A stretch of 34,901 nt of DNA from the IMG/VR virus record IMGVR_UViG_3300043313_001987, positions 1 to 34,901 of that record; one strand, given 5' to 3'. Source of the DNA: a virus. Below, piece by piece: positions 16,543-31,096 of this stretch. Numbering within the stretch: position 1 is the first letter of the stretch; each line of letters starts with the position of its first letter. The notes beneath the pieces are model-generated. The model was not told where the DNA came from. It did not search any database and worked only from the letters and a program-made list of their open reading frames with translations. Made by a program: the position numbers and the translations under genes.

Positions 16543-17804
16543 CAGGGGACCAGCCTTGTGACCGCAAGAACTCGGAACCCGGTAATGGCAGCGTCGGTGA
16601 AGGACCCCGGGAGATCGGCCTGTCCCGCCCACATCCCGCCGATCCGAGGTGACCTACCGAGAACGGTGTCGGATACGGCGGCGCCACCCTGTGTCGCGGA
16701 GTAGATGCCGGGGACGGCGGCGGCGCTCACGCACAGAACGGCGACCGCGTAACGTTGCCCTCGAACTTTGGCGAGCGACGGCGTCAGGGTGCGCAGGTAG
16801 GCGGTGTAGGTCGTCGCGTAGAGCGTCAGGTCGTTCGGTGTCGAGGCGACGAGGGTGCCGTTGCCGGCGGCGTCGATCCGGTAGATGCCGACCCGGATGA
16901 GTGTCGGGGTCGCAGCGGCGGCCGTTCCGCCGGTGTAGGTCTCGATGCCGGTGACCGTCTCGGTCTTCTCGGCGGTGAAGTAGTGCAGCATGAGACGGCC
17001 GGAGAGGAGCGGCTGAGCGAGGGAGCCGGAGAGCGCGAGTACCCGTGAGCACGGCACCATCTCGCCGACGTCGAGCGGGTCGATCCGACGGCCGACGAGC
17101 CCGAGCGTCTCGTTGATCCGGACGTCTTCGTCGTAGCGGTAGACGCCTTCCTGGGTGAGGTCGGTTCGGAGTGCGTTGGTGATCGCGGGGTCGGCGTCGG
17201 CGCCGGCCGGGCCGGTCGCTCCGGTGTCGCCTTTGAGCCCGACGGGCCCGGCTGGGCCGATCGGGCCGGTTGGACCCGTGGGTCCGGTGGGACCCGGCAC
17301 GGTCGAGTCGGCGCCGGCCAGGCCGGGGTTACCGATCGGGCCGGCTGGTCCGACGGGCCCGGCTGGGCCGATCGGGCCGGTTGGACCCGGGATCGTGGAC
17401 GCCGCACCGACGGGCCCTCGAGGTCCGGCAGGTCCGGTGGGACCGGGGATCGTGGACGGGTCGCCGGTGGGACCGGTCGCACCGATGTCACCTTTGGGTC
17501 CGGTGGGTCCCCGTGCACCGGCCGGCCCGACCGGTCCGGTCGCACCCTGATCGCCGGCGGGTCCTGCGTCACCCGGTTCGCCCGGTTCGCCTCGGGGCCC
17601 GGCCGGGCCCGGGTCACCCTTCGGGCCTGGCACGCTGGAGTCGGCACCGGCCGGGCCTGCCGGGCCCTGTTCACCGACCGGGCCGACCGGACCCGGCACG
17701 GTCGAGTCGGCGCCGGCCGGGCCGGGGTTACCGATGGCGGCGGTGCCGTCGACGACGATGTTGACCGGGTCGACATGGACCGTGAACCCGACGGTGTCGG
17801 TCAT
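16542..17804 (-). CDS. Collagen-like tail fibre or virion fibre protein
   Basis: 420 residues. A short N-terminal beta segment ([20 protein letters not shown]) leads into about 190 residues of Gly-X-Y triplets (27 to about 215). These are broken at intervals by [23 protein letters not shown] and ASTIPGP. The C-terminal 200 residues are a globular beta domain ([43 protein letters not shown]) that probably trimerises and binds a receptor. It is coupled to the 110-residue gene before it. Its place upstream of the terminase, away from the other tail genes, is unusual. Confidence 0.88.
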
Positions 17805-24830: not shown

Positions 24831-25420
24831 CGGACCTTCACCCCGTACCGCTCCGGCTCGAACACCTGACGGACACCCGGCACGACCTCCCCCGACCCGG
24901 ACACGATCGACGTCACCCGCTCGACCGTCTCGTCCCCATCAGGTGGCACCGGCCGGTACCCGTCCTTCAACCGCGACACCAACGGCTTGCGCGACAGCAG
25001 CTCCGGGTCGTTCACCTCAGCCCACGCGACGAACGCCTCCTCGTCGGTCACCTCCACCCGGGACGGACCCTTCCGGACCGTCAGGTCACCGGCCGGCAAC
25101 TTGTAGGTCTTCGGCAGCTTCGGGTCGGCGTCCTCGAGCCGGCGCCGGTAGTCGACCAGGTGCGCCTTGAAAAATCCGATGTCATCGACCGGACCCCGGC
25201 AGGCGTCAGCCTTCCACTGGTTGATCCGGGCGATCTCACCGTTCGCCACCGCAAGGACCCGGGCCACCTCAGCCTCAGCCCGGGCCACCTTGCGCAACGC
25301 CCACGTCGCCGCCGAATCGTCGGTGATGGCGAACGCCTCCTCCACCCGCTCAGCCTCGAACCCGGCCGTGCGGTCGCGGTCCGACTCCCAGTCATCCACC
25401 CACTCCGGCTCGACGCTCAC
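24827..25420 (-). CDS. gam: Mu Gam-like host nuclease inhibitor
   Basis: 197 residues from GTG 25420. Family pattern: AATWALRKVARAEAEVARVLAVANGEIARINQWK as the long helix, then IGFFKAHLVDYRRRLEDADPKLPKTYKLPAGDLTVRKGPSRVEVTDEEAFVAWAE and a closing GEVVPGVRQVFEP. Mu Gam is a Ku-like dimer that binds DNA ends and blocks exonucleases such as RecBCD/AddAB. In phages it often pairs with an annealase, and here ERF lies three genes downstream. It is coupled at both ends. Confidence 0.85.
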   Translation of the reverse strand: MSVEPEWVDDWESDRDRTAGFEAERVEEAFAITDDSAATWALRKVARAEAEVARVLAVANGEIARINQWKADACRGPVDDIGFFKAHLVDYRRRLEDADPKLPKTYKLPAGDLTVRKGPSRVEVTDEEAFVAWAEVNDPELLSRKPLVSRLKDGYRPVPPDGDETVERVTSIVSGSGEVVPGVRQVFEPERYGVKVR

Positions 25421-25779
25421 GACGACACCTCCCCGACCGGGACCGCACCGACCGTGGCGTCGGCGACCGGCGGGTGGCCACCCGGGAAGTAGTACAGCTG
25501 CAGCTCGGCCCGACCGAACCGGCGGCGCACCAACCGGAACGTCACATGCGACTCGTGCTCCACCACACCGTCAGCGGCCAACACGTCGGACAGACGGTCA
25601 AACTGGTCCTCCGAACCGGCGTCGACCGAGTAGGTCACCGGAGCGAACTCATGCAAGGTCGGGACCGGGAACGCCGGGTGATCCCACACGAACCGGCACA
25701 ACGCCCCCAGGTCCTGGACCAGGGCGAGCACGTCCTCCCGGAACTGCTTGCGGCTCGCAACCTCAGCGGTCTCGGTCAT
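25417..25779 (-). CDS. Hypothetical protein after the single-block GGCNN repeat
   Basis: 120 residues from ATG 25779 (GGAGG 5 nt upstream). Another in-frame ATG at 25803 lies within the repeat. A helical segment (SRKQFREDVLALVQDLGALCRFVWDHPAFPVPTL) is followed by beta strands (TYSVDAGSEDQFDRLSDVLAAD, HESHVTFRLVRRRFGRAELQLYYFPG). The overall shape is that of a small alpha/beta phage protein of unknown role. A 22-bp stretch encoding PVTYSVD is shared exactly with the gene at 25889-26578. Confidence 0.72.
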   Translation of the reverse strand: MTETAEVASRKQFREDVLALVQDLGALCRFVWDHPAFPVPTLHEFAPVTYSVDAGSEDQFDRLSDVLAADGVVEHESHVTFRLVRRRFGRAELQLYYFPGGHPPVADATVGAVPVGEVSS

Positions 25780-25892
25780 CCGACCCTCCATCTCGATCTC
25801 CATGCCTGCCGTGCCCTGCCTGGCCCGGCCTTGCCGTGCCATGACGAACCCGACCCCGCCGTGCCCTGCCCCTCCATGCCTGCCGCGGTCAT
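25776..25892 (-). CDS. Possible 38-residue ORF across the single-block repeat
   Basis: ATG 25892 overlaps the previous gene's TGA (ATGA), and its own TGA overlaps the next ATG (25779) by 4 nt, the same coupling style as most junctions here. The product begins MTAAGMEGQG and then is Gly/Ala/Ser/Arg-rich (AGSGSSWHGKAGPGRARQAW). The first codons MTAAGxEG are shared with the long-array ORF at 26994-27743. It may be a real short peptide, or only a frame kept open so that ribosomes can cross to the next gene. Confidence 0.4.
   Translation of the reverse strand: MTAAGMEGQGTAGSGSSWHGKAGPGRARQAWRSRWRVG
25802..25884 (-). repeat. Single-block GGCNN pentanucleotide repeat
   Basis: On the plus strand this is one pentamer (ATGCC), a 4-base TGCC, fourteen pentamers of form NNGCC (with ATGAC, GAACC, CGACC and CCTCC as variants) and a closing TGCC. 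It is one block of the long array at 27023-27735, with the same punctuation and the same flanking leader (minus strand CGATGACCGCGGCAGGC), and it likewise begins at a stop codon. Confidence 0.88.
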
Positions 25893-26578
25893 CGCCGGGC
25901 CTCGAACCGTCGACCCGAACCCGGCGTCCCACCCACAGCGTCAGCGGCACGGTCACGCATCCGCTGCTGATGATCCGCACCACCATCAGCGACCGCCGAC
26001 AACGGCGCCGACCGGCCGGCCGCCTCCCACCCCGACAGGGTGAGCGTCGCCCTCGTCGTACGTCTCGCCGACGTCACCGCGATCACCAACCGGTCCGCCT
26101 TCAACCGGTACAGGGTGTTCGACACCACCGACGGCTTCAGGCCCGTCAGGTCAGCGATCTTGCCGGACACGCCACCGGCCGGGTCGGACAGCTCACCACC
26201 GGCCTCAGCCAACAACGCCAGCACCTCAGCCATCGGACCACCCGGCGTCACCGCCACCCGCTCCGGCTCCGGCTCCGGGTCCGGGTCCGGGTCCGGGTCC
26301 GGGTCGGGCTCCGGATACGGGCCGACGTCGACCGAGTAGGTCACCGGCTCCGACACCGGTACCGGTTCCGGCACCTCCGGTGACGGCTCAGGTGGATCCT
26401 CGACGACCGGCGCCGGGGCCTCGACCGGCGGCGGAGTGGATCCGTCCAGACCAGTAACCGCCAGGGTCACCAGCTGCAGGAACCCTGAGTAGAGATGGGG
26501 CGGTCCACCGAGATCCAACTCGAGGCGGAGGTTGCAATCGGTGTCGTTTATCTCGAAGGACACTGTGCCGGGGGTCAT
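25889..26578 (-). CDS. Hypothetical protein with Pro-Asp repeat linker and C-terminal winged helix
   Basis: 229 residues. A beta-rich N-terminus (TVSFEINDTDCNLRLELDLGGPPHLYSGFLQLVTLAV) is followed by a long Pro/Glu/Val linker with PDPDPDPDPDPEPEPE, encoded by a CCGGGT hexanucleotide microsatellite (about 26270-26310). A winged-helix domain follows (about 118-175): MAEVLALLAEAGGELSDPAGGVSGKIADLTGLKPSVVSNTLYRLKADRLVIAV. The architecture suggests a DNA-binding regulator with a tethered partner-binding head. Its stop codon is the first base triplet of the single-block repeat leader. Confidence 0.75.
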   Translation of the reverse strand: MTPGTVSFEINDTDCNLRLELDLGGPPHLYSGFLQLVTLAVTGLDGSTPPPVEAPAPVVEDPPEPSPEVPEPVPVSEPVTYSVDVGPYPEPDPDPDPDPDPEPEPERVAVTPGGPMAEVLALLAEAGGELSDPAGGVSGKIADLTGLKPSVVSNTLYRLKADRLVIAVTSARRTTRATLTLSGWEAAGRSAPLSAVADGGADHQQRMRDRAADAVGGTPGSGRRFEARR

Positions 26579-26997
26579 GACGCCTCCTTACCGAGGTCGC
26601 CCCGGACCAGGTCGACGAACTCGACGAAGTGACCGAAGCGCCGGTGCAGCTGCTTCCACTCCCGCTCCATGTCCTTCAGGACGATGCGCGACAGGAGCTC
26701 GTCGCCGGCCACCTTCTCGGCCGGCTCGTACACATGCCCCGACGGCTGCCGGACCGCATGCCACGCCCGCACCGACTCACCCGGATCGGTCTCCGTCGGC
26801 TCCCGGTACACCACCCGGACCGACCGGATCAGCTGCTGGGCCTGGACACGCCGCCACGCCTCACCAGCCGTCTCGTTGTCCCAGTCGAACCGCTCATGCA
26901 GCGGATGGTCAGCCGGGCGGGCCTGGTCGACGACGACCGACGGCGTCAACCGGCCGTGCTCGTCGTAGATGGCCTGGAGGTGATCGCGCAAACTCAC
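26575..26997 (-). CDS. Hypothetical phage protein downstream of the long repeat array
   Basis: 140 residues from GTG 26997, which overlaps the array ORF stop by 4 nt and has GAGGGGG upstream. DHLQAIYDEHGRLTPSVVVDQARPADHPLHERFDWDNETAGEAWRRVQAQQLIRSVRVVY, then AWHAVRQPSGHVYEPAEKVAGDELLSRIVLKDMEREWKQLHRRFGHFVEFVDLV, is a pattern I associate with a hypothetical family common in phage recombination/early regions. It has no known function. The C-terminal part is helical and charged. Confidence 0.78.
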   Translation of the reverse strand: MSLRDHLQAIYDEHGRLTPSVVVDQARPADHPLHERFDWDNETAGEAWRRVQAQQLIRSVRVVYREPTETDPGESVRAWHAVRQPSGHVYEPAEKVAGDELLSRIVLKDMEREWKQLHRRFGHFVEFVDLVRGDLGKEAS

Positions 26998-27743
26998 ACG
27001 ACCACCCCCTCAGCCCCACGACATGCCGCACCCAGCCGAACCCTGCCGGGACCAGCACTGCCGTGCCTTGCCCAGCCTGCCGAGTCATGCCCTGCCGTAC
27101 CATGCCGCGACCGGCCAAACCCAGGCCCGCCGTGCCCGGCCATGCCTGCCTTACCTCGCCAAGCCGTGCCCGACCCCGCCACGCCGAACCCCGCCGAGCC
27201 ACGCCTTGCCTGCCAAGCCTTGCCGCACCGTGCCCCGACTAGCCCTGCCATGCCTGCCGGGCCAAGCCTCGACACGCCTTGCGCTGCCCGACCGTGCCCT
27301 GCCTCGCCTGCCACGCCTTGCCGAACCGCACCGCGACTTGCCGCGCCGCGCCTTGCCTGCCGTGCCACGCCACACCAAGCCGGACCATGCCCGGCCGGAC
27401 CATGCGCCGCCGTGCCTGCCCAGCCCTGACGAGCCGTACCCCGACCTGCCCCACCACGCCGTGCCAAGCCAAGCCTGGCCTGCCACGACCAGCCCGGCCA
27501 TGCCTCGCCAGGCCTCGCCATGCCGCACCTCGACGGGCCTGCCGAACCCTGACCAGCCATACCGAGGTGTGCCCTGACCCACCGCACCATGCCAGCCCTG
27601 CCGGGCCCTGCCTCGCCTCGCCGAGACGTGCCTCGCCATACTGAGCCGAGCCCTGCCTGCCGAGCCAAGCCCCGCCGGGACGAGCCTTGCCGGGACACGC
27701 CTAGCCAAGCCATGCCGAACCCCTCCACGCCTGCCGCGGTCAT
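26994..27743 (-). CDS. Possible 249-residue ORF spanning the whole GGCNN array
   Basis: ATG 27743 overlaps the previous TGA (ATGA). The frame stays open through all 713 bp of repeats and ends in a TGA that overlaps the next GTG start by 4 nt. The product begins MTAAGVEGFGMAWLG and then repeats a five-residue theme, Gly-x-Ala/Ser-Arg/Trp/Gly-x (GLARQ, GMARP, GEAWP). It is very basic and Gly-rich. GGCNN repeats contain few stops in any frame, so openness alone is weak evidence. The exact joins at both ends, repeated in the short version, are the better argument. It could be a real repeat protein, or only a readable spacer. Confidence 0.4.
   Translation of the reverse strand: MTAAGVEGFGMAWLGVSRQGSSRRGLARQAGLGSVWRGTSRRGEAGPGRAGMVRWVRAHLGMAGQGSAGPSRCGMARPGEAWPGWSWQARLGLARRGGAGRGTARQGWAGTAAHGPAGHGPAWCGVARQARRGAASRGAVRQGVAGEAGHGRAAQGVSRLGPAGMAGLVGARCGKAWQARRGSAGFGVAGSGTAWRGKAGMAGHGGPGFGRSRHGTAGHDSAGWARHGSAGPGRVRLGAACRGAEGVVV
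27023..27735 (-). repeat. Long degenerate pentanucleotide array (GGCNN) with regular one-base register shifts
   Basis: Read on the minus strand, all 713 bp divide without remainder into 133 five-base units and 12 four-base units. About two thirds of the five-base units are GGCNN, 22 are GGTNN and 14 are GTCNN. The four-base units (GGCA, once GGCT) stand at 27078, 27147, 27211, 27255, 27309, 27358, 27417, 27481, 27540, 27594, 27658 and 27732 (plus-strand start of each). Blocks between them hold 8-14 pentamers, average about 60 bp. The two N positions vary freely. The array fills the gap between two minus-strand genes in the recombination module. Confidence 0.95.
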
Positions 27744-28360
27744 CGTTCGATCACCTCGATGTCGCGCGTGCCGTCGACGCAATAGGTGCCGAATTCGCCG
27801 CGCCGCTCCGGCCGCCATTCGCCGACACCGATGCCGAGCCCGCCGGCGTCGATCAACGACAGGACGCTCGCCCTCGACAACGAACTCATCACGTAGGTGA
27901 CGAGGAGGTTCGTCCGCCACTCGGTGAACATCGGCCGGTAGCGGAGGTCCGCCGACCGGGAGGCGCCACCGAGACGGACGATGTCCTCCCGCATGATCGG
28001 CTCACCGATGATCGGCACCAGCGCCTGCGCATCCTTCTCGGACAGCTCACCGTGCATGAACAGGAACTGGCGGAGCGACGTCATGTTGATGTCCTTGCCG
28101 TAGAAGCGGGCGGCTCCGACGGTCGCCGCCTTGAACGCGGTGACCGGGAAGCCGTAGCCGTCTTTCGTCCGGTAGAACGCGGCCTCGTACTCGGCCTGCG
28201 GGTCACGGGTCTCCTTCGGCTTCTTCCGGCCCTGCTGGGCGTCGAGCATCTGACGCTTCGACTTGTCGGAGAAGTTGTGGACGATCAGCGGCATGGTGCC
28301 GACGATCGGGACCTGGATGGTTTCCGAGGCGATGCGGTCGATCTGGATCTGAGCGGTCAT
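27740..28360 (-). CDS. Conserved-type phage protein directly upstream of the array
   Basis: 206 residues with SD GAGAAGGA before ATG 28360. The sequence reads ETIQVPIVGTMPLIVHNFSDKSKRQMLDAQQGRKK, then DPQAEYEAAFYRTKDGYGFPVTAFKAATVGAARF, then PIIGEPIMREDIVRLGGASRSADLRYRPMFTEWRTNLLVTYV and ends AGGLGIGVGEWRPERRGEFGTY. I recognise it as a phage family of unknown function with this conserved order. The glycine-rich G.G.GEWRPE..G.FG end recalls the glycine-rich loop of RAMP/Cas7-type RNA-binding folds, but that is only an impression. Its stop codon lies inside the leader that starts the array, so array and gene are physically tied. Confidence 0.78.
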   Translation of the reverse strand: MTAQIQIDRIASETIQVPIVGTMPLIVHNFSDKSKRQMLDAQQGRKKPKETRDPQAEYEAAFYRTKDGYGFPVTAFKAATVGAARFYGKDINMTSLRQFLFMHGELSEKDAQALVPIIGEPIMREDIVRLGGASRSADLRYRPMFTEWRTNLLVTYVMSSLSRASVLSLIDAGGLGIGVGEWRPERRGEFGTYCVDGTRDIEVIER

Positions 28361-28799: not shown

Positions 28800-29089
28800 C
28801 AGGACACCCGCCGATCCGGTGCAGCGGCCGAGGCGGTGGGAGAAGCGAAGGTGTGGTGCGCGATCGACAGGCAGACATGCCCGAGGTCGGCCCACGCCAC
28901 CGCGTCGTGCAGCGTGTCGAACGTGTGGACGGTGCCGTCCGGGCAGGTGACCGTCGTGCGCTGTCGCGACCCGCCTAGTGGAGAAGCGTTCTCACTGGGG
29001 GGGGGGGGGGCTTGCCTTAGCGGGTTGCGGGGCGCGTCACGGTCTCCCGATCCTGGATCGGGAGGCCCGACGTGGTGCACGTCGGCCAT
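28799..29089 (-). CDS. Hypothetical protein containing a 14-base homopolymer
   Basis: 96 residues from ATG 29089 (AGAAGGTGA 7 nt upstream). The C-terminal half looks like real protein (TTVTCPDGTVHTFDTLHDAVAWADLGHVCLSIAHHTF). The N-terminal half is Pro/Gly/Arg-rich. It contains a run of 14 C on the coding strand (28997-29010) encoding APPPP, and a 10-bp inverted repeat at 29044-29064. No start codon exists after the homopolymer in this frame. The homopolymer therefore decides whether the gene is in frame, so it could be phase-variable or miscounted by sequencing. Confidence 0.5.
   Translation of the reverse strand: MADVHHVGPPDPGSGDRDAPRNPLRQAPPPPSENASPLGGSRQRTTVTCPDGTVHTFDTLHDAVAWADLGHVCLSIAHHTFASPTASAAAPDRRVS
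28997..29010 (-). repeat. 14-base homopolymer (G on plus strand, C on coding strand)
   Basis: Fourteen consecutive G lie inside the gene at 28799-29089. At exactly 14 the ATG at 29089 is joined in frame to the conserved-looking C-terminal half. Any change not divisible by three would separate them. Confidence 0.9.
29044..29064. other. 10-bp inverted repeat near the start of the homopolymer gene
   Basis: CTCCCGATCC (29044-29053) and GGATCGGGAG (29055-29064) are exact reverse complements separated by one base. Such a nearly perfect 21-bp dyad could be an operator or a hairpin. It lies 25 bp inside the called gene, which makes the true start of that gene less certain. Confidence 0.55.
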
Positions 29090-29492: not shown

Positions 29493-29972
29493 ATGGAAAC
29501 AGGCGCACCGATAGCCGAGCGGGTGGCGACGAACCTGCGCTACCTCAGACAGGCCAGAGAGATCACCCTGGCGAAGCTCAGCGAGCAGCTCGCCAAGCAG
29601 GGCCGACCGATGGGGATCAGCGCCCTGTCCAAGGTCGAGCTGGGCCAGCGTGGGATAGACGTCGACGACCTCGTCGCGTTCGCCGATGCGCTCGGGACGT
29701 CGGTCAGCGACCTGCTTGGCGATCCGGCAGCCCGCGGTCACGAGTTGGCGTACGACCTCGTCGCCGATCTGCGTACTCGGCTGTCGCTGAACGAGCGCGT
29801 TCGCCGGCAGCACGAAATCGCCGAAGCGGAGAAGTGGTCGGCGATCGTCGACTTCGCCGCTGAGGGCCCGGCGGAGCTCGAGGCCGTCTGCCTCAGCTTG
29901 CGGGAGCAGTTCAAGGACGAGGCGGCCCGGCTTATCGAGCAGCTCCGGGCCGACATGAAGGAGCAGAACTGA
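29493..29972 (+). CDS. XRE-family immunity repressor
   Basis: 159 residues from ATG 29493. The helix-turn-helix is at about 8-65: IAERVATNLRYLRQAREITLAKLSEQLAKQGRPMGISALSKVELGQRGIDVDDLVAFADALGTSVSDLLG, a typical XRE/Cro-CI fold. A charged helical C-terminal half (ADLRTRLSLNERVRRQHEIAEAEKW...LSLREQFKDEAARLIEQLRADMK) could mediate dimerisation. There is no LexA-like peptidase part, so induction would not follow RecA-triggered self-cleavage. The stop shares a base with the integrase start, so repressor and integrase are made from one message. Confidence 0.85.
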   Translation: METGAPIAERVATNLRYLRQAREITLAKLSEQLAKQGRPMGISALSKVELGQRGIDVDDLVAFADALGTSVSDLLGDPAARGHELAYDLVADLRTRLSLNERVRRQHEIAEAEKWSAIVDFAAEGPAELEAVCLSLREQFKDEAARLIEQLRADMKEQN

Positions 29973-31096
29973 TGGCCAGCATCGACAAGCGACCCAACGG
30001 CATGTTCCGAGCGCGGTGGCGGGAGTACCCGAACGGTCCGCAGCACACCAAGCAGTTCCGGCTGAAGAAGGACGCCACGGCGTTCCTGGTGCATGTCGAG
30101 CACCGGCTCATGAGCGGCACCTACACGACGCCGTCGGCCGGCCAGATGACGGTCGAGGCGTACTCGGAGGAGTGGACCAGGCGGAGGAGCTGGTCGCCGG
30201 CGACGCACGACAGGGTCGCCCGGGAACTGCGTCTGCACATCCTGCCCCGCCTGGGCGACCGACCACTCGCTAGCCTGCGCCGGCCGCACATCGAGGAGTG
30301 GGCCAAGGGCCTCCCGCTGGCGCCGTCGAGTGCACGGATGGTCTACGAGACGTTGTCGTCGATGCTGGCCTGTGCCGTGGATGACGAGCGCATCCCGCGG
30401 AACCCGGCCAAGGACGCCCGGCTGGCGCAGGCCGAGGTCGTGCCGTTCGTCCCGCTGGCTGTCGACCAGGTCCTCGGCGTCGCCCACACTGCGCCGGAGC
30501 ACATCCGAGCAGCGGTGGTGCTCGGAGCCGGCACCGGCCTGCGCCAGGGCGAGCTGTTCGGCTTGACCGTGGATCGGATCGACTTCATGCGGCGTGAGCT
30601 CCGGGTCGACCGTCAGCTCTGGTCGCCGGCAACGGGTCGGCCGTTCCTGAAGTCGCCGAAGTCGAAGAACAGCTACCGGACCATCGCCCTCAGCTCGCTC
30701 GTGGTCGACACGCTCGCCGCTCATCTGGCCAACTTCGGGACGGGCGACGAGGAGCTGTGGGACGAGGCCACGAAGTCCACCGGGCCGGTCGCCCTCGTCT
30801 TCCACATCGGCGGCCGGGCCGTGGTGCGGGCGATGGCGACGAAGTACATGAGGACATCGACCCAGCGGGCCGGCGTGGCCGGGACATGGCACGACCTGCG
30901 CCACCACCACGCCTCCGTTCTGCTCGCCGCCGGCGTGAACCCGGCCAAGGTGGCGGAGCGGCTCGGGCACGACCTGAAGACGCTCCTGACGACCTACGCC
31001 CACGTCATGCCGAAGGACGACGACCGGGTCCGGAGCATCGTTGACGAGACCCTCGGCGTTTCAGCTGAGGACTGGTTGAGGACTAGGACGGTTTGA
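29972..31096 (+). CDS. int: Tyrosine site-specific integrase
   Basis: 374 residues. The N-terminus (SIDKRPNGMFRARWREYPNGPQHTKQFRLKKDATAFL) is an arm-binding AP2-like domain. A SAM-like core-binding domain spans about 60-150 (TVEAYSEEWTRRRSWSPATHD...). Catalytic residues are present: R191 in GAGTGLRQGELFGL, the KSPKSKNSYR lysine region (about 230), H307 and R310 in HDLRHHH, H333 in LGHD and nucleophile Y342 in TYAHV. attP follows immediately at 31064-31320. The 3' end of the gene itself carries two arm repeats. Confidence 0.95.
   Translation: MASIDKRPNGMFRARWREYPNGPQHTKQFRLKKDATAFLVHVEHRLMSGTYTTPSAGQMTVEAYSEEWTRRRSWSPATHDRVARELRLHILPRLGDRPLASLRRPHIEEWAKGLPLAPSSARMVYETLSSMLACAVDDERIPRNPAKDARLAQAEVVPFVPLAVDQVLGVAHTAPEHIRAAVVLGAGTGLRQGELFGLTVDRIDFMRRELRVDRQLWSPATGRPFLKSPKSKNSYRTIALSSLVVDTLAAHLANFGTGDEELWDEATKSTGPVALVFHIGGRAVVRAMATKYMRTSTQRAGVAGTWHDLRHHHASVLLAAGVNPAKVAERLGHDLKTLLTTYAHVMPKDDDRVRSIVDETLGVSAEDWLRTRTV
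31064..31086 (+). repeat. attP left arm repeats (two 11-bp tandem copies)
   Basis: GCTGAGGACTG then GTTGAGGACTA in tandem with an 11-bp period, inside the last codons of integrase. The same pair occurs in the same orientation at 31298-31320. This is the layout of integrase arm-type sites. Confidence 0.75.

What the first reader, a model, noticed from the sequence alone, without database searches (positions are those of the whole stretch)
27023..27735. A 713-bp array of GGCNN pentanucleotides with a one-base register shift about every 60 bp
The stretch divides without remainder into 133 five-base and 12 four-base units (133x5 + 12x4 = 713). Three of every five positions are held (GGC, less often GGT or GTC) while two vary freely, so neither simple slippage nor codon use explains it. 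The four-base units recur after 13, 12, 8, 10, 9, 11, 12, 11, 10, 12 and 14 pentamers, so there is a second level of order. On the coding strand each gives the heptamer GGCAGGC, except one GGCTGGC. This is not a CRISPR, iteron or ordinary satellite design. It lies in an operon with an ERF annealase, a Gam-like protein and a conserved protein of unknown function. Possible roles, all inference: a binding platform for a protein that contacts one unit per half helical turn, a structured RNA, a recombination platform, or a coding repeat.
Basis: seen in the sequence. Interest (0 to 1): 0.93.

Follow-up and report, generated by a model that had tools for sequence, protein, structure and literature searches.

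The report
Guide-RNA array of a phage VIPR system
The odd GGCNN repeat is a string of twelve guide RNAs belonging to VIPR, a CRISPR-like phage weapon first described in a 2026 preprint; the guides read out as genes of rival phages, and guides at the edges of such arrays often match other versions of the very gene they sit next to.

Summary
The repeat is the guide array of a VIPR system (Viral Interference Programmable Repeat; PMC13142463). The 'conserved protein of unknown function' at 27740-28360 is its RAMP protein Vipr: a family profile hits the solved SUSP1 Vipr (E=7e-13), and the model resembles CRISPR Csm3. The 140-aa protein at 26575-26997 is the likely accessory (Vap), beside vipr in 107 of 118 loci. 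The four-base units (GGCA) separate twelve guides of 8-14 pentamers. A second, one-guide array lies at 25802-25884. Read with the published rule (keep NN, skip one target base), guides match genes far above controls: 10 hits at E<1e-3 against 0, 0 and 3 for other skips and 1 for shuffles. Window guide 1 reads as a non-self vipr gene (25/28 against L033/L043, 20/28 against its own). Guide 12 reads as the HExxH active site of ImmA/IrrE-type peptidases, a target shared by guides in about ten other loci. Apparently new: edge guides target diverged alleles of the gene they abut (first guide against upstream flank 10/127, other guides 1/758). No expression or binding was tested.

The parts
27740..28360 (-). 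vipr: RAMP protein of 206 aa, partner of the guides
   Evidence: Family profile hits PDB 36pp_D 'SUSP1 Vipr protein', E=7.2e-13; single sequence E=5e-4; AF2 model (pLDDT 86.5) matches Csm3/Cas7-like RAMPs, VIA Z 11.5; glycine-rich loop GGLGIGVGEWRP..G.FG with near-invariant residues
27018..27735 (-). main guide array: 12 guides of 8-14 GGYNN units separated by 4-base units (11 GGCA, 1 GGCT)
27662..27731 (-). guide 1 (14 units); decodes antisense to [DE][NK]PG[DE][FL]GTY[NK][IM][DE]PT, the C-terminus of a non-self Vipr
   Evidence: 25/28 to vipr of L033/L043 (E=2.6e-7 within vipr genes), own vipr 20/28
27658..27661 (-). example of a 4-base separator (GGCA); others at 27732-27735, 27594-27597 (GGCT), 27540-27543, 27481-27484, 27417-27420, 27358-27361, 27309-27312, 27255-27258, 27211-27214, 27147-27150, 27078-27081
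   Evidence: separator GGCA in 547 of 610 clean junctions across relatives
27598..27657 (-). guide 2 (12 units), target not found
   Evidence: no exact target in IMG/VR
27544..27593 (-). guide 3 (10 units), target not found
27485..27539 (-). guide 4 (11 units), target not found; the one guide here that clearly favours sense codons
27421..27480 (-). guide 5 (12 units); shared with sister phage (17 of 18 NN letters over 9 units); antisense decode [HQ]L[DE]VPLPTV[NK][NK][CW], perhaps an excisionase-type HTH (inference)
27362..27416 (-). guide 6 (11 units), target not found
27313..27357 (-). guide 7 (9 units); identical in the sister phage L001/L024
27259..27308 (-). guide 8 (10 units); antisense decode G[NK]ST[FL]LRVLS, Walker-A-like (inference only)
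   Evidence: sequence shown; decoded by hand
27215..27254 (-). guide 9 (8 units), target not found
27151..27210 (-). guide 10 (12 units), target not found
27082..27146 (-). guide 11 (13 units), target not found
27018..27077 (-). guide 12 (12 units incl. terminal GTCGT); antisense decode T[IM]A[HQ][DE]LG[HQ]LV[FL][HQ] = HExxH site of ImmA/IrrE-type (Peptidase_M78) proteins
   Evidence: largest cluster of shared guides (10 guides, 11 loci); 3 exact 20/20 targets in IMG/VR, all in frame TIAHELGHLV, two of them PF06114; 5 matches and 0 control matches in 60 genomes
26575..26997 (-). vap candidate, 140 aa accessory protein (phrog_15946)
   Evidence: found in 107 of 118 vipr loci, almost always within about 1 kb of vipr; model pLDDT 92, no significant PDB fold match
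25802..25884 (-). second array: one guide of 14 units (25811-25880) between two GGCA separators, plus one trailing unit
   Evidence: in the sister phage the same guide differs at 5 of 28 NN positions and 1 of 42 GGY positions (counted by eye on the sequences)
25417..25779 (-). gene just downstream of the second array; a diverged allele of it (ALCRFVWDHPAFPV region) is what that guide decodes to
   Evidence: 20/28 in the own gene, E=7e-4; homologue in sister phage
29972..31096 (+). tyrosine integrase (context: temperate phage)
   Evidence: PF00589, phrog_1

Best explanation
The array is the guide-RNA (vrRNA) array of a phage-borne VIPR system. SHOWN here by sequence: a Vipr protein, a conserved accessory gene, and guides built of GGYNN units whose NN pairs, read with one skipped target base, spell codons of other genes. 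INFERRED, from the published SUSP1 system: the operon is transcribed from vipr through the array into vap, so guides are cut out of the mRNA; the 4-base GGCA units mark guide boundaries; Vipr subunits coat each guide, keep GGY out of pairing and present NN to the target; the complex binds the matching DNA and silences the gene. The targets read here are rival-phage genes (vipr alleles, ImmA/IrrE-type peptidases), so the phage probably uses it against competing phages and their VIPR systems. Edge guides attack other alleles of the gene beside them; linkage to a resistant allele would protect self.
For: Membership: profile of 74 homologues hits SUSP1 Vipr in the PDB, E=7.2e-13; RAMP fold; the published system has the same parts. 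Association: nearly every relative not cut by a contig end has a same-strand GGYNN array with 4-mers beside vipr, and 107/118 have the vap. Code: 823 guides against 2 Mb of relatives' DNA, arrays masked: one-base skip 10 hits at E<1e-3; skips 0, 2, 3 give 0, 0, 3; NN-shuffled 1. Within vipr genes 9 hits at E<1e-3 against 0 in all other skips and three shuffles, all in frame with the skip at the wobble base. Edge rule: first guide against own upstream 500 b, E<0.01, 10/127; other guides 1/758; shuffled 4/635; skips 0, 2, 3 all 0; last guide against downstream 10/126 against 6/757. Self-avoidance: in 8 of 8 vipr-targeting edge guides another allele scores above the own one, e.g. 25 v 20 of 28 (window); L062's own Vipr has the same residues but other codons, 16 v 19 of 20. 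ImmA/IrrE.
Against: No transcript, processing, binding or silencing was measured. Targets were identified for 2 of 12 main-array guides (plus the mini-array guide by partial match); exact or near-exact searches for guides 2 and 11 found nothing. No invariant 3' tail as in the SUSP1 clade was seen, so how single guides are released is unknown. The last NN before the 4-mer matches targets at only 62% of positions, so the exact 3' end of the guide is unsure. Most edge guides show no significant match to their neighbour.
Confidence: 0.93

Rival explanations
1. Edge guides do not attack rival alleles but tune the phage's own adjacent gene through imperfect pairing (self-regulation).
For: They match the own adjacent gene above chance; for three vap-adjacent guides (L074, L058, L030) the own allele is the best match in the set.
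Against: For all 8 vipr-targeting edge guides another phage's allele matches better and the own gene has at least 4 mismatches; L024 guide 1 matches the window's vipr 18/20 but its own only 11/20; L062's own gene differs by synonymous recoding.
Confidence: 0.15
2. The array is a DNA platform bound by ERF, Gam or another protein for recombination or packaging.
For: ERF and Gam genes lie in the same operon.
Against: What recurs beside the arrays across phyla is vipr and vap; NN pairs carry target information.
Confidence: 0.02
3. A coding repeat (open frames run through the array on both strands).
For: ORFs of 185-308 aa overlap it.
Against: Each 4-mer shifts the frame; the nucleotides GGY are held whatever the frame, in every relative; NN pairs spell codons of other genes with a one-base skip.
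Confidence: 0.01
4. A VIPR array, but the complex acts on target mRNA rather than DNA.
For: Guide 12 and its whole cluster, guide 1, and most window guides are antisense to the coding strand, so they would pair with the mRNA.
Against: Several vipr-targeting guides in relatives are sense and could pair only with the template DNA strand; the published system binds double-stranded DNA.
Confidence: 0.08

Closest known systems
VIPR, type II (Escherichia phage SUSP1 and Pseudomonas fulva prophage; PMC13142463)
   Same: Vipr homologue, GGYNN guides of similar unit number, one-base-skip code, accessory gene, phage-borne, targets in rival phages including other VIPRs
   Different: Here the guides are head-to-tail, separated only by a 4-base unit, inside one operon, without an invariant 3' tail; the accessory protein is of unknown fold
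[quoted passage not shown] S18 of the same preprint, not readable here)
   Same: Continuous arrays with a repeated register shift would fit the name
   Different: Could not be compared; the supplement was out of reach
Class 1 CRISPR (Csm3/Cas7 RAMPs)
   Same: RAMP fold, RNA-guided
   Different: No CRISPR repeats and spacers and no cas gene among the neighbours examined; periodic gapped code instead of contiguous pairing

Membership tests
VIPR | Vipr protein of the RAMP superfamily | tested here: met
   SUSP1 Vipr hit E=7.2e-13; Csm3-like fold Z 11.5
VIPR | Guides of about 9-16 YNNGG units | tested here: met
   Guides of 8-14 units here
VIPR | GGY held, NN hypervariable | tested here: met
   Unit profile; sister mini-array 5/28 NN against 1/42 GGY changes
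VIPR | One-nucleotide-skip target code | tested here: met
   Only skip 1 exceeds controls within vipr genes and at array edges; computational only
VIPR | Phage or provirus encoded, targets competing elements | tested here: met
   Window is a 34,901-base virus record with integrase; targets vipr alleles and M78 peptidases
VIPR | vap accessory gene | tested here: met
   By synteny in 107/118 loci; DNA-binding fold not shown
VIPR | Guide RNA expressed and bound by Vipr | not testable with these tools
   Needs RNA-seq and pull-down
VIPR type II (SUSP1 clade) | Separate guides, each with an invariant 3' tail | tested here: not met
   Guides abut; no common tail at array ends
VIPR 'staggered' type | Overlapping guides in a staggered array | not testable with these tools
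CRISPR-Cas | Identical repeats with unique spacers, cas genes | tested here: not met
   Pentamer array; no Cas family among the neighbouring proteins scanned against Pfam and PHROGs

The most novel reading that the evidence does not exclude
Guides at the edges of VIPR arrays are genetically tied to a resistant version of the gene they attack: each such edge guide recognises other phages' alleles of the gene it abuts, while the resident allele escapes through amino-acid or synonymous-codon changes. This would make guide plus neighbour a poison-antidote-like, linkage-selected unit.
Probability: 0.7. Interest if true: 0.85.

Novelty: new member of a known kind. Interest (0 to 1): 0.75.

Why it matters
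It confirms the newly reported VIPR code in a different array layout and in phages across several phyla, using natural targets. It also gives two testable leads not stated in the main text of the preprint: edge guides aimed at alleles of the neighbouring gene, and a recurrent 'public' guide against the catalytic codons of ImmA/IrrE-type peptidases, a site that can hardly mutate. Laboratory mycobacteriophages and Gordonia phages carry the same cassette, so it can be tested now.

Tried and rejected
Exact target scans of IMG/VR for guides 2, 11 and a guide-5 consensus: none, none, and one chance hit. Guide 11 in 297 genomes of an actinobacterial class with 3 mismatches: none. Kin of the host genome could not be drawn because the window is a virus record. 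Vap fold search: nothing significant, only weak winged-helix-like rows. Rfam: no family. The global codon test is only suggestive because NN composition is biased. The comparison of homologous guides by position is confounded by selecting pairs on NN identity, so it is not used as evidence. IMG/VR homologues of the gene after the mini-array: only the sister phage, so the rival allele for that guide was not found.

Full report
OBSERVATION. It is far from chance: 104 pattern matches against 1.0 expected, and array score 235 against at most 14 in resamples of the same sequence. The array runs one pentamer further, to 27018, and a second array with one guide lies at 25802-25884.

IDENTITY. A literature search on the repeat led to PMC13142463, which describes VIPR: a small RAMP protein, Vipr, and guide RNAs of alternating GGY and NN, where NN pairs with the target and one target base is skipped per unit. 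I tested this rather than assumed it. The neighbour at 27740-28360 has homologues in many phages. A profile of 74 of them finds the solved SUSP1 Vipr at E=7.2e-13, with no other convincing hit. The window protein alone finds it at 5e-4. Its model (pLDDT 86.5) aligns best to Csm3 and other CRISPR RAMPs.

CONSERVED CASSETTE. Nearly all relatives carry a same-strand GGYNN array with 4-base units next to vipr; most of the few without one are cut by a contig end. 107 of 118 loci also have a homologue of the 140-aa protein at 26575-26997, the probable Vap. Relatives include mycobacteriophages, Gordonia phages, rhizobial, clostridial and bacteroidetes contigs and a cyanophage. Pseudomonas phage LESphi2, whose Vipr resembles those of Felixounavirus coliphages, instead has separate arrays without 4-mers, as in the published type.

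THE FOUR-BASE UNIT. It is GGCA in 547 of 610 clean junctions. It divides arrays into guides mostly of about 7-15 units, the size of published vrRNAs. Arrays usually begin with GGCA and often end near GGCAGGC, and no common tail follows. In confident targets every NN of a guide tends to match except the last before the 4-mer (62%). The simplest reading is that the 4-mer separates guides. In this window vipr ends 4 bases before the array and vap starts 20 bases after it, so guides must be cut from the operon mRNA (inference).

CODE. I scanned 823 guides against 2 Mb of relatives' DNA with arrays masked. At E<1e-3 a one-base skip gives 10 hits, no skip 0, two-base skip 0, three-base skip 3 (two of them below 1e-6; not examined one by one), and shuffled guides 1. 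Restricted to vipr genes, there are 9 hits at E<1e-3 against 0 for every other skip and for three shuffles, all with the skipped base at the codon wobble position.

TARGETS OF THE WINDOW'S GUIDES. Guide 1 is antisense to the C-terminal codons of a Vipr gene: 25/28 in L033 and L043 but 20/28 in its own vipr. The sister phage L024 (Vipr 93% identical) carries a first guide that matches the window's vipr 18/20 and its own 11/20. Guide 12 belongs to the largest cluster of shared guides (10 guides in 11 loci), which decodes antisense to the motif T-x-A-H-E-L-G-H-L-V. Exact 20-base targets in IMG/VR are three, all in frame TIAHELGHLV. Two are Peptidase_M78 (ImmA/IrrE) proteins, one with an XRE-type HTH domain; the third is in another protein. 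In 60 genomes the pattern has 5 matches and its reversed control none. The mini-array guide decodes to a diverged version of the gene just downstream of it (20/28 in the own gene). The other guides have no confident target.

EDGE RULE. First guides match the 500 bases upstream of their own array at E<0.01 in 10/127 cases, other guides in 1/758, shuffled in 4/635. Last guides match downstream in 10/126, others 6/757, shuffled 1/630. Other skips give 0 for first guides and 0-1 for last guides. The second and third guides do not show it, nor does permuting guides among arrays (mean 1.0). The match is partial, and for all 8 vipr-targeting edge guides another phage's allele matches better; for three vap-adjacent guides the own allele is the best in this set. 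L062 shows escape by codon choice alone. I read this as guides aimed at rival alleles and selected to stay linked to a resistant allele. Self-regulation is the main rival reading. The main text of the preprint says only that some guides target other VIPR systems; its supplement could not be read.

VERDICT. A new member of the VIPR kind, in a tail-less, GGCA-separated layout that may be the preprint's 'staggered' type (not checkable here). Expression, processing and silencing are inferred from the published system, not shown.

Noticed in passing
window 25802-25884 (-): Second, one-guide array between GGCA units, overlapping an apparent ORF; the real start of the downstream gene is probably ATG at 25779.
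   Followed up: yes
window 27259-27308 and 27421-27480 (-): Guide 8 decodes antisense to a Walker-A-like G[NK]ST[FL]LRVLS and guide 5 to an HTH-like [HQ]L[DE]VPLPTV[NK][NK]W; targets not identified.
   Followed up: partly
window 28997-29010: Run of 14 G upstream of the operon; possible slippage or assembly weak point.
   Followed up: no
window 17300-17480 (+): Collagen-like [15 protein letters not shown] repeats, probably a tail-fibre-type protein.
   Followed up: no
window 26262-26314: Hexamer repeat coding for a Pro/Glu/Asp-rich linker in the gene at 25889-26578 (-), which ends in a weak winged-helix-like region.
   Followed up: no
L076 12423-15279: A VIPR array of 585 units with 68 non-pentamer units, by far the longest seen here.
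   Followed up: no
L016/L019/L020/L023 and phage records: Named laboratory phages (Gordonia phages UmaThurman, Pipp, ODay; Mycobacterium phages Saal and others) carry the same cassette annotated only as hypothetical proteins.
   Followed up: partly
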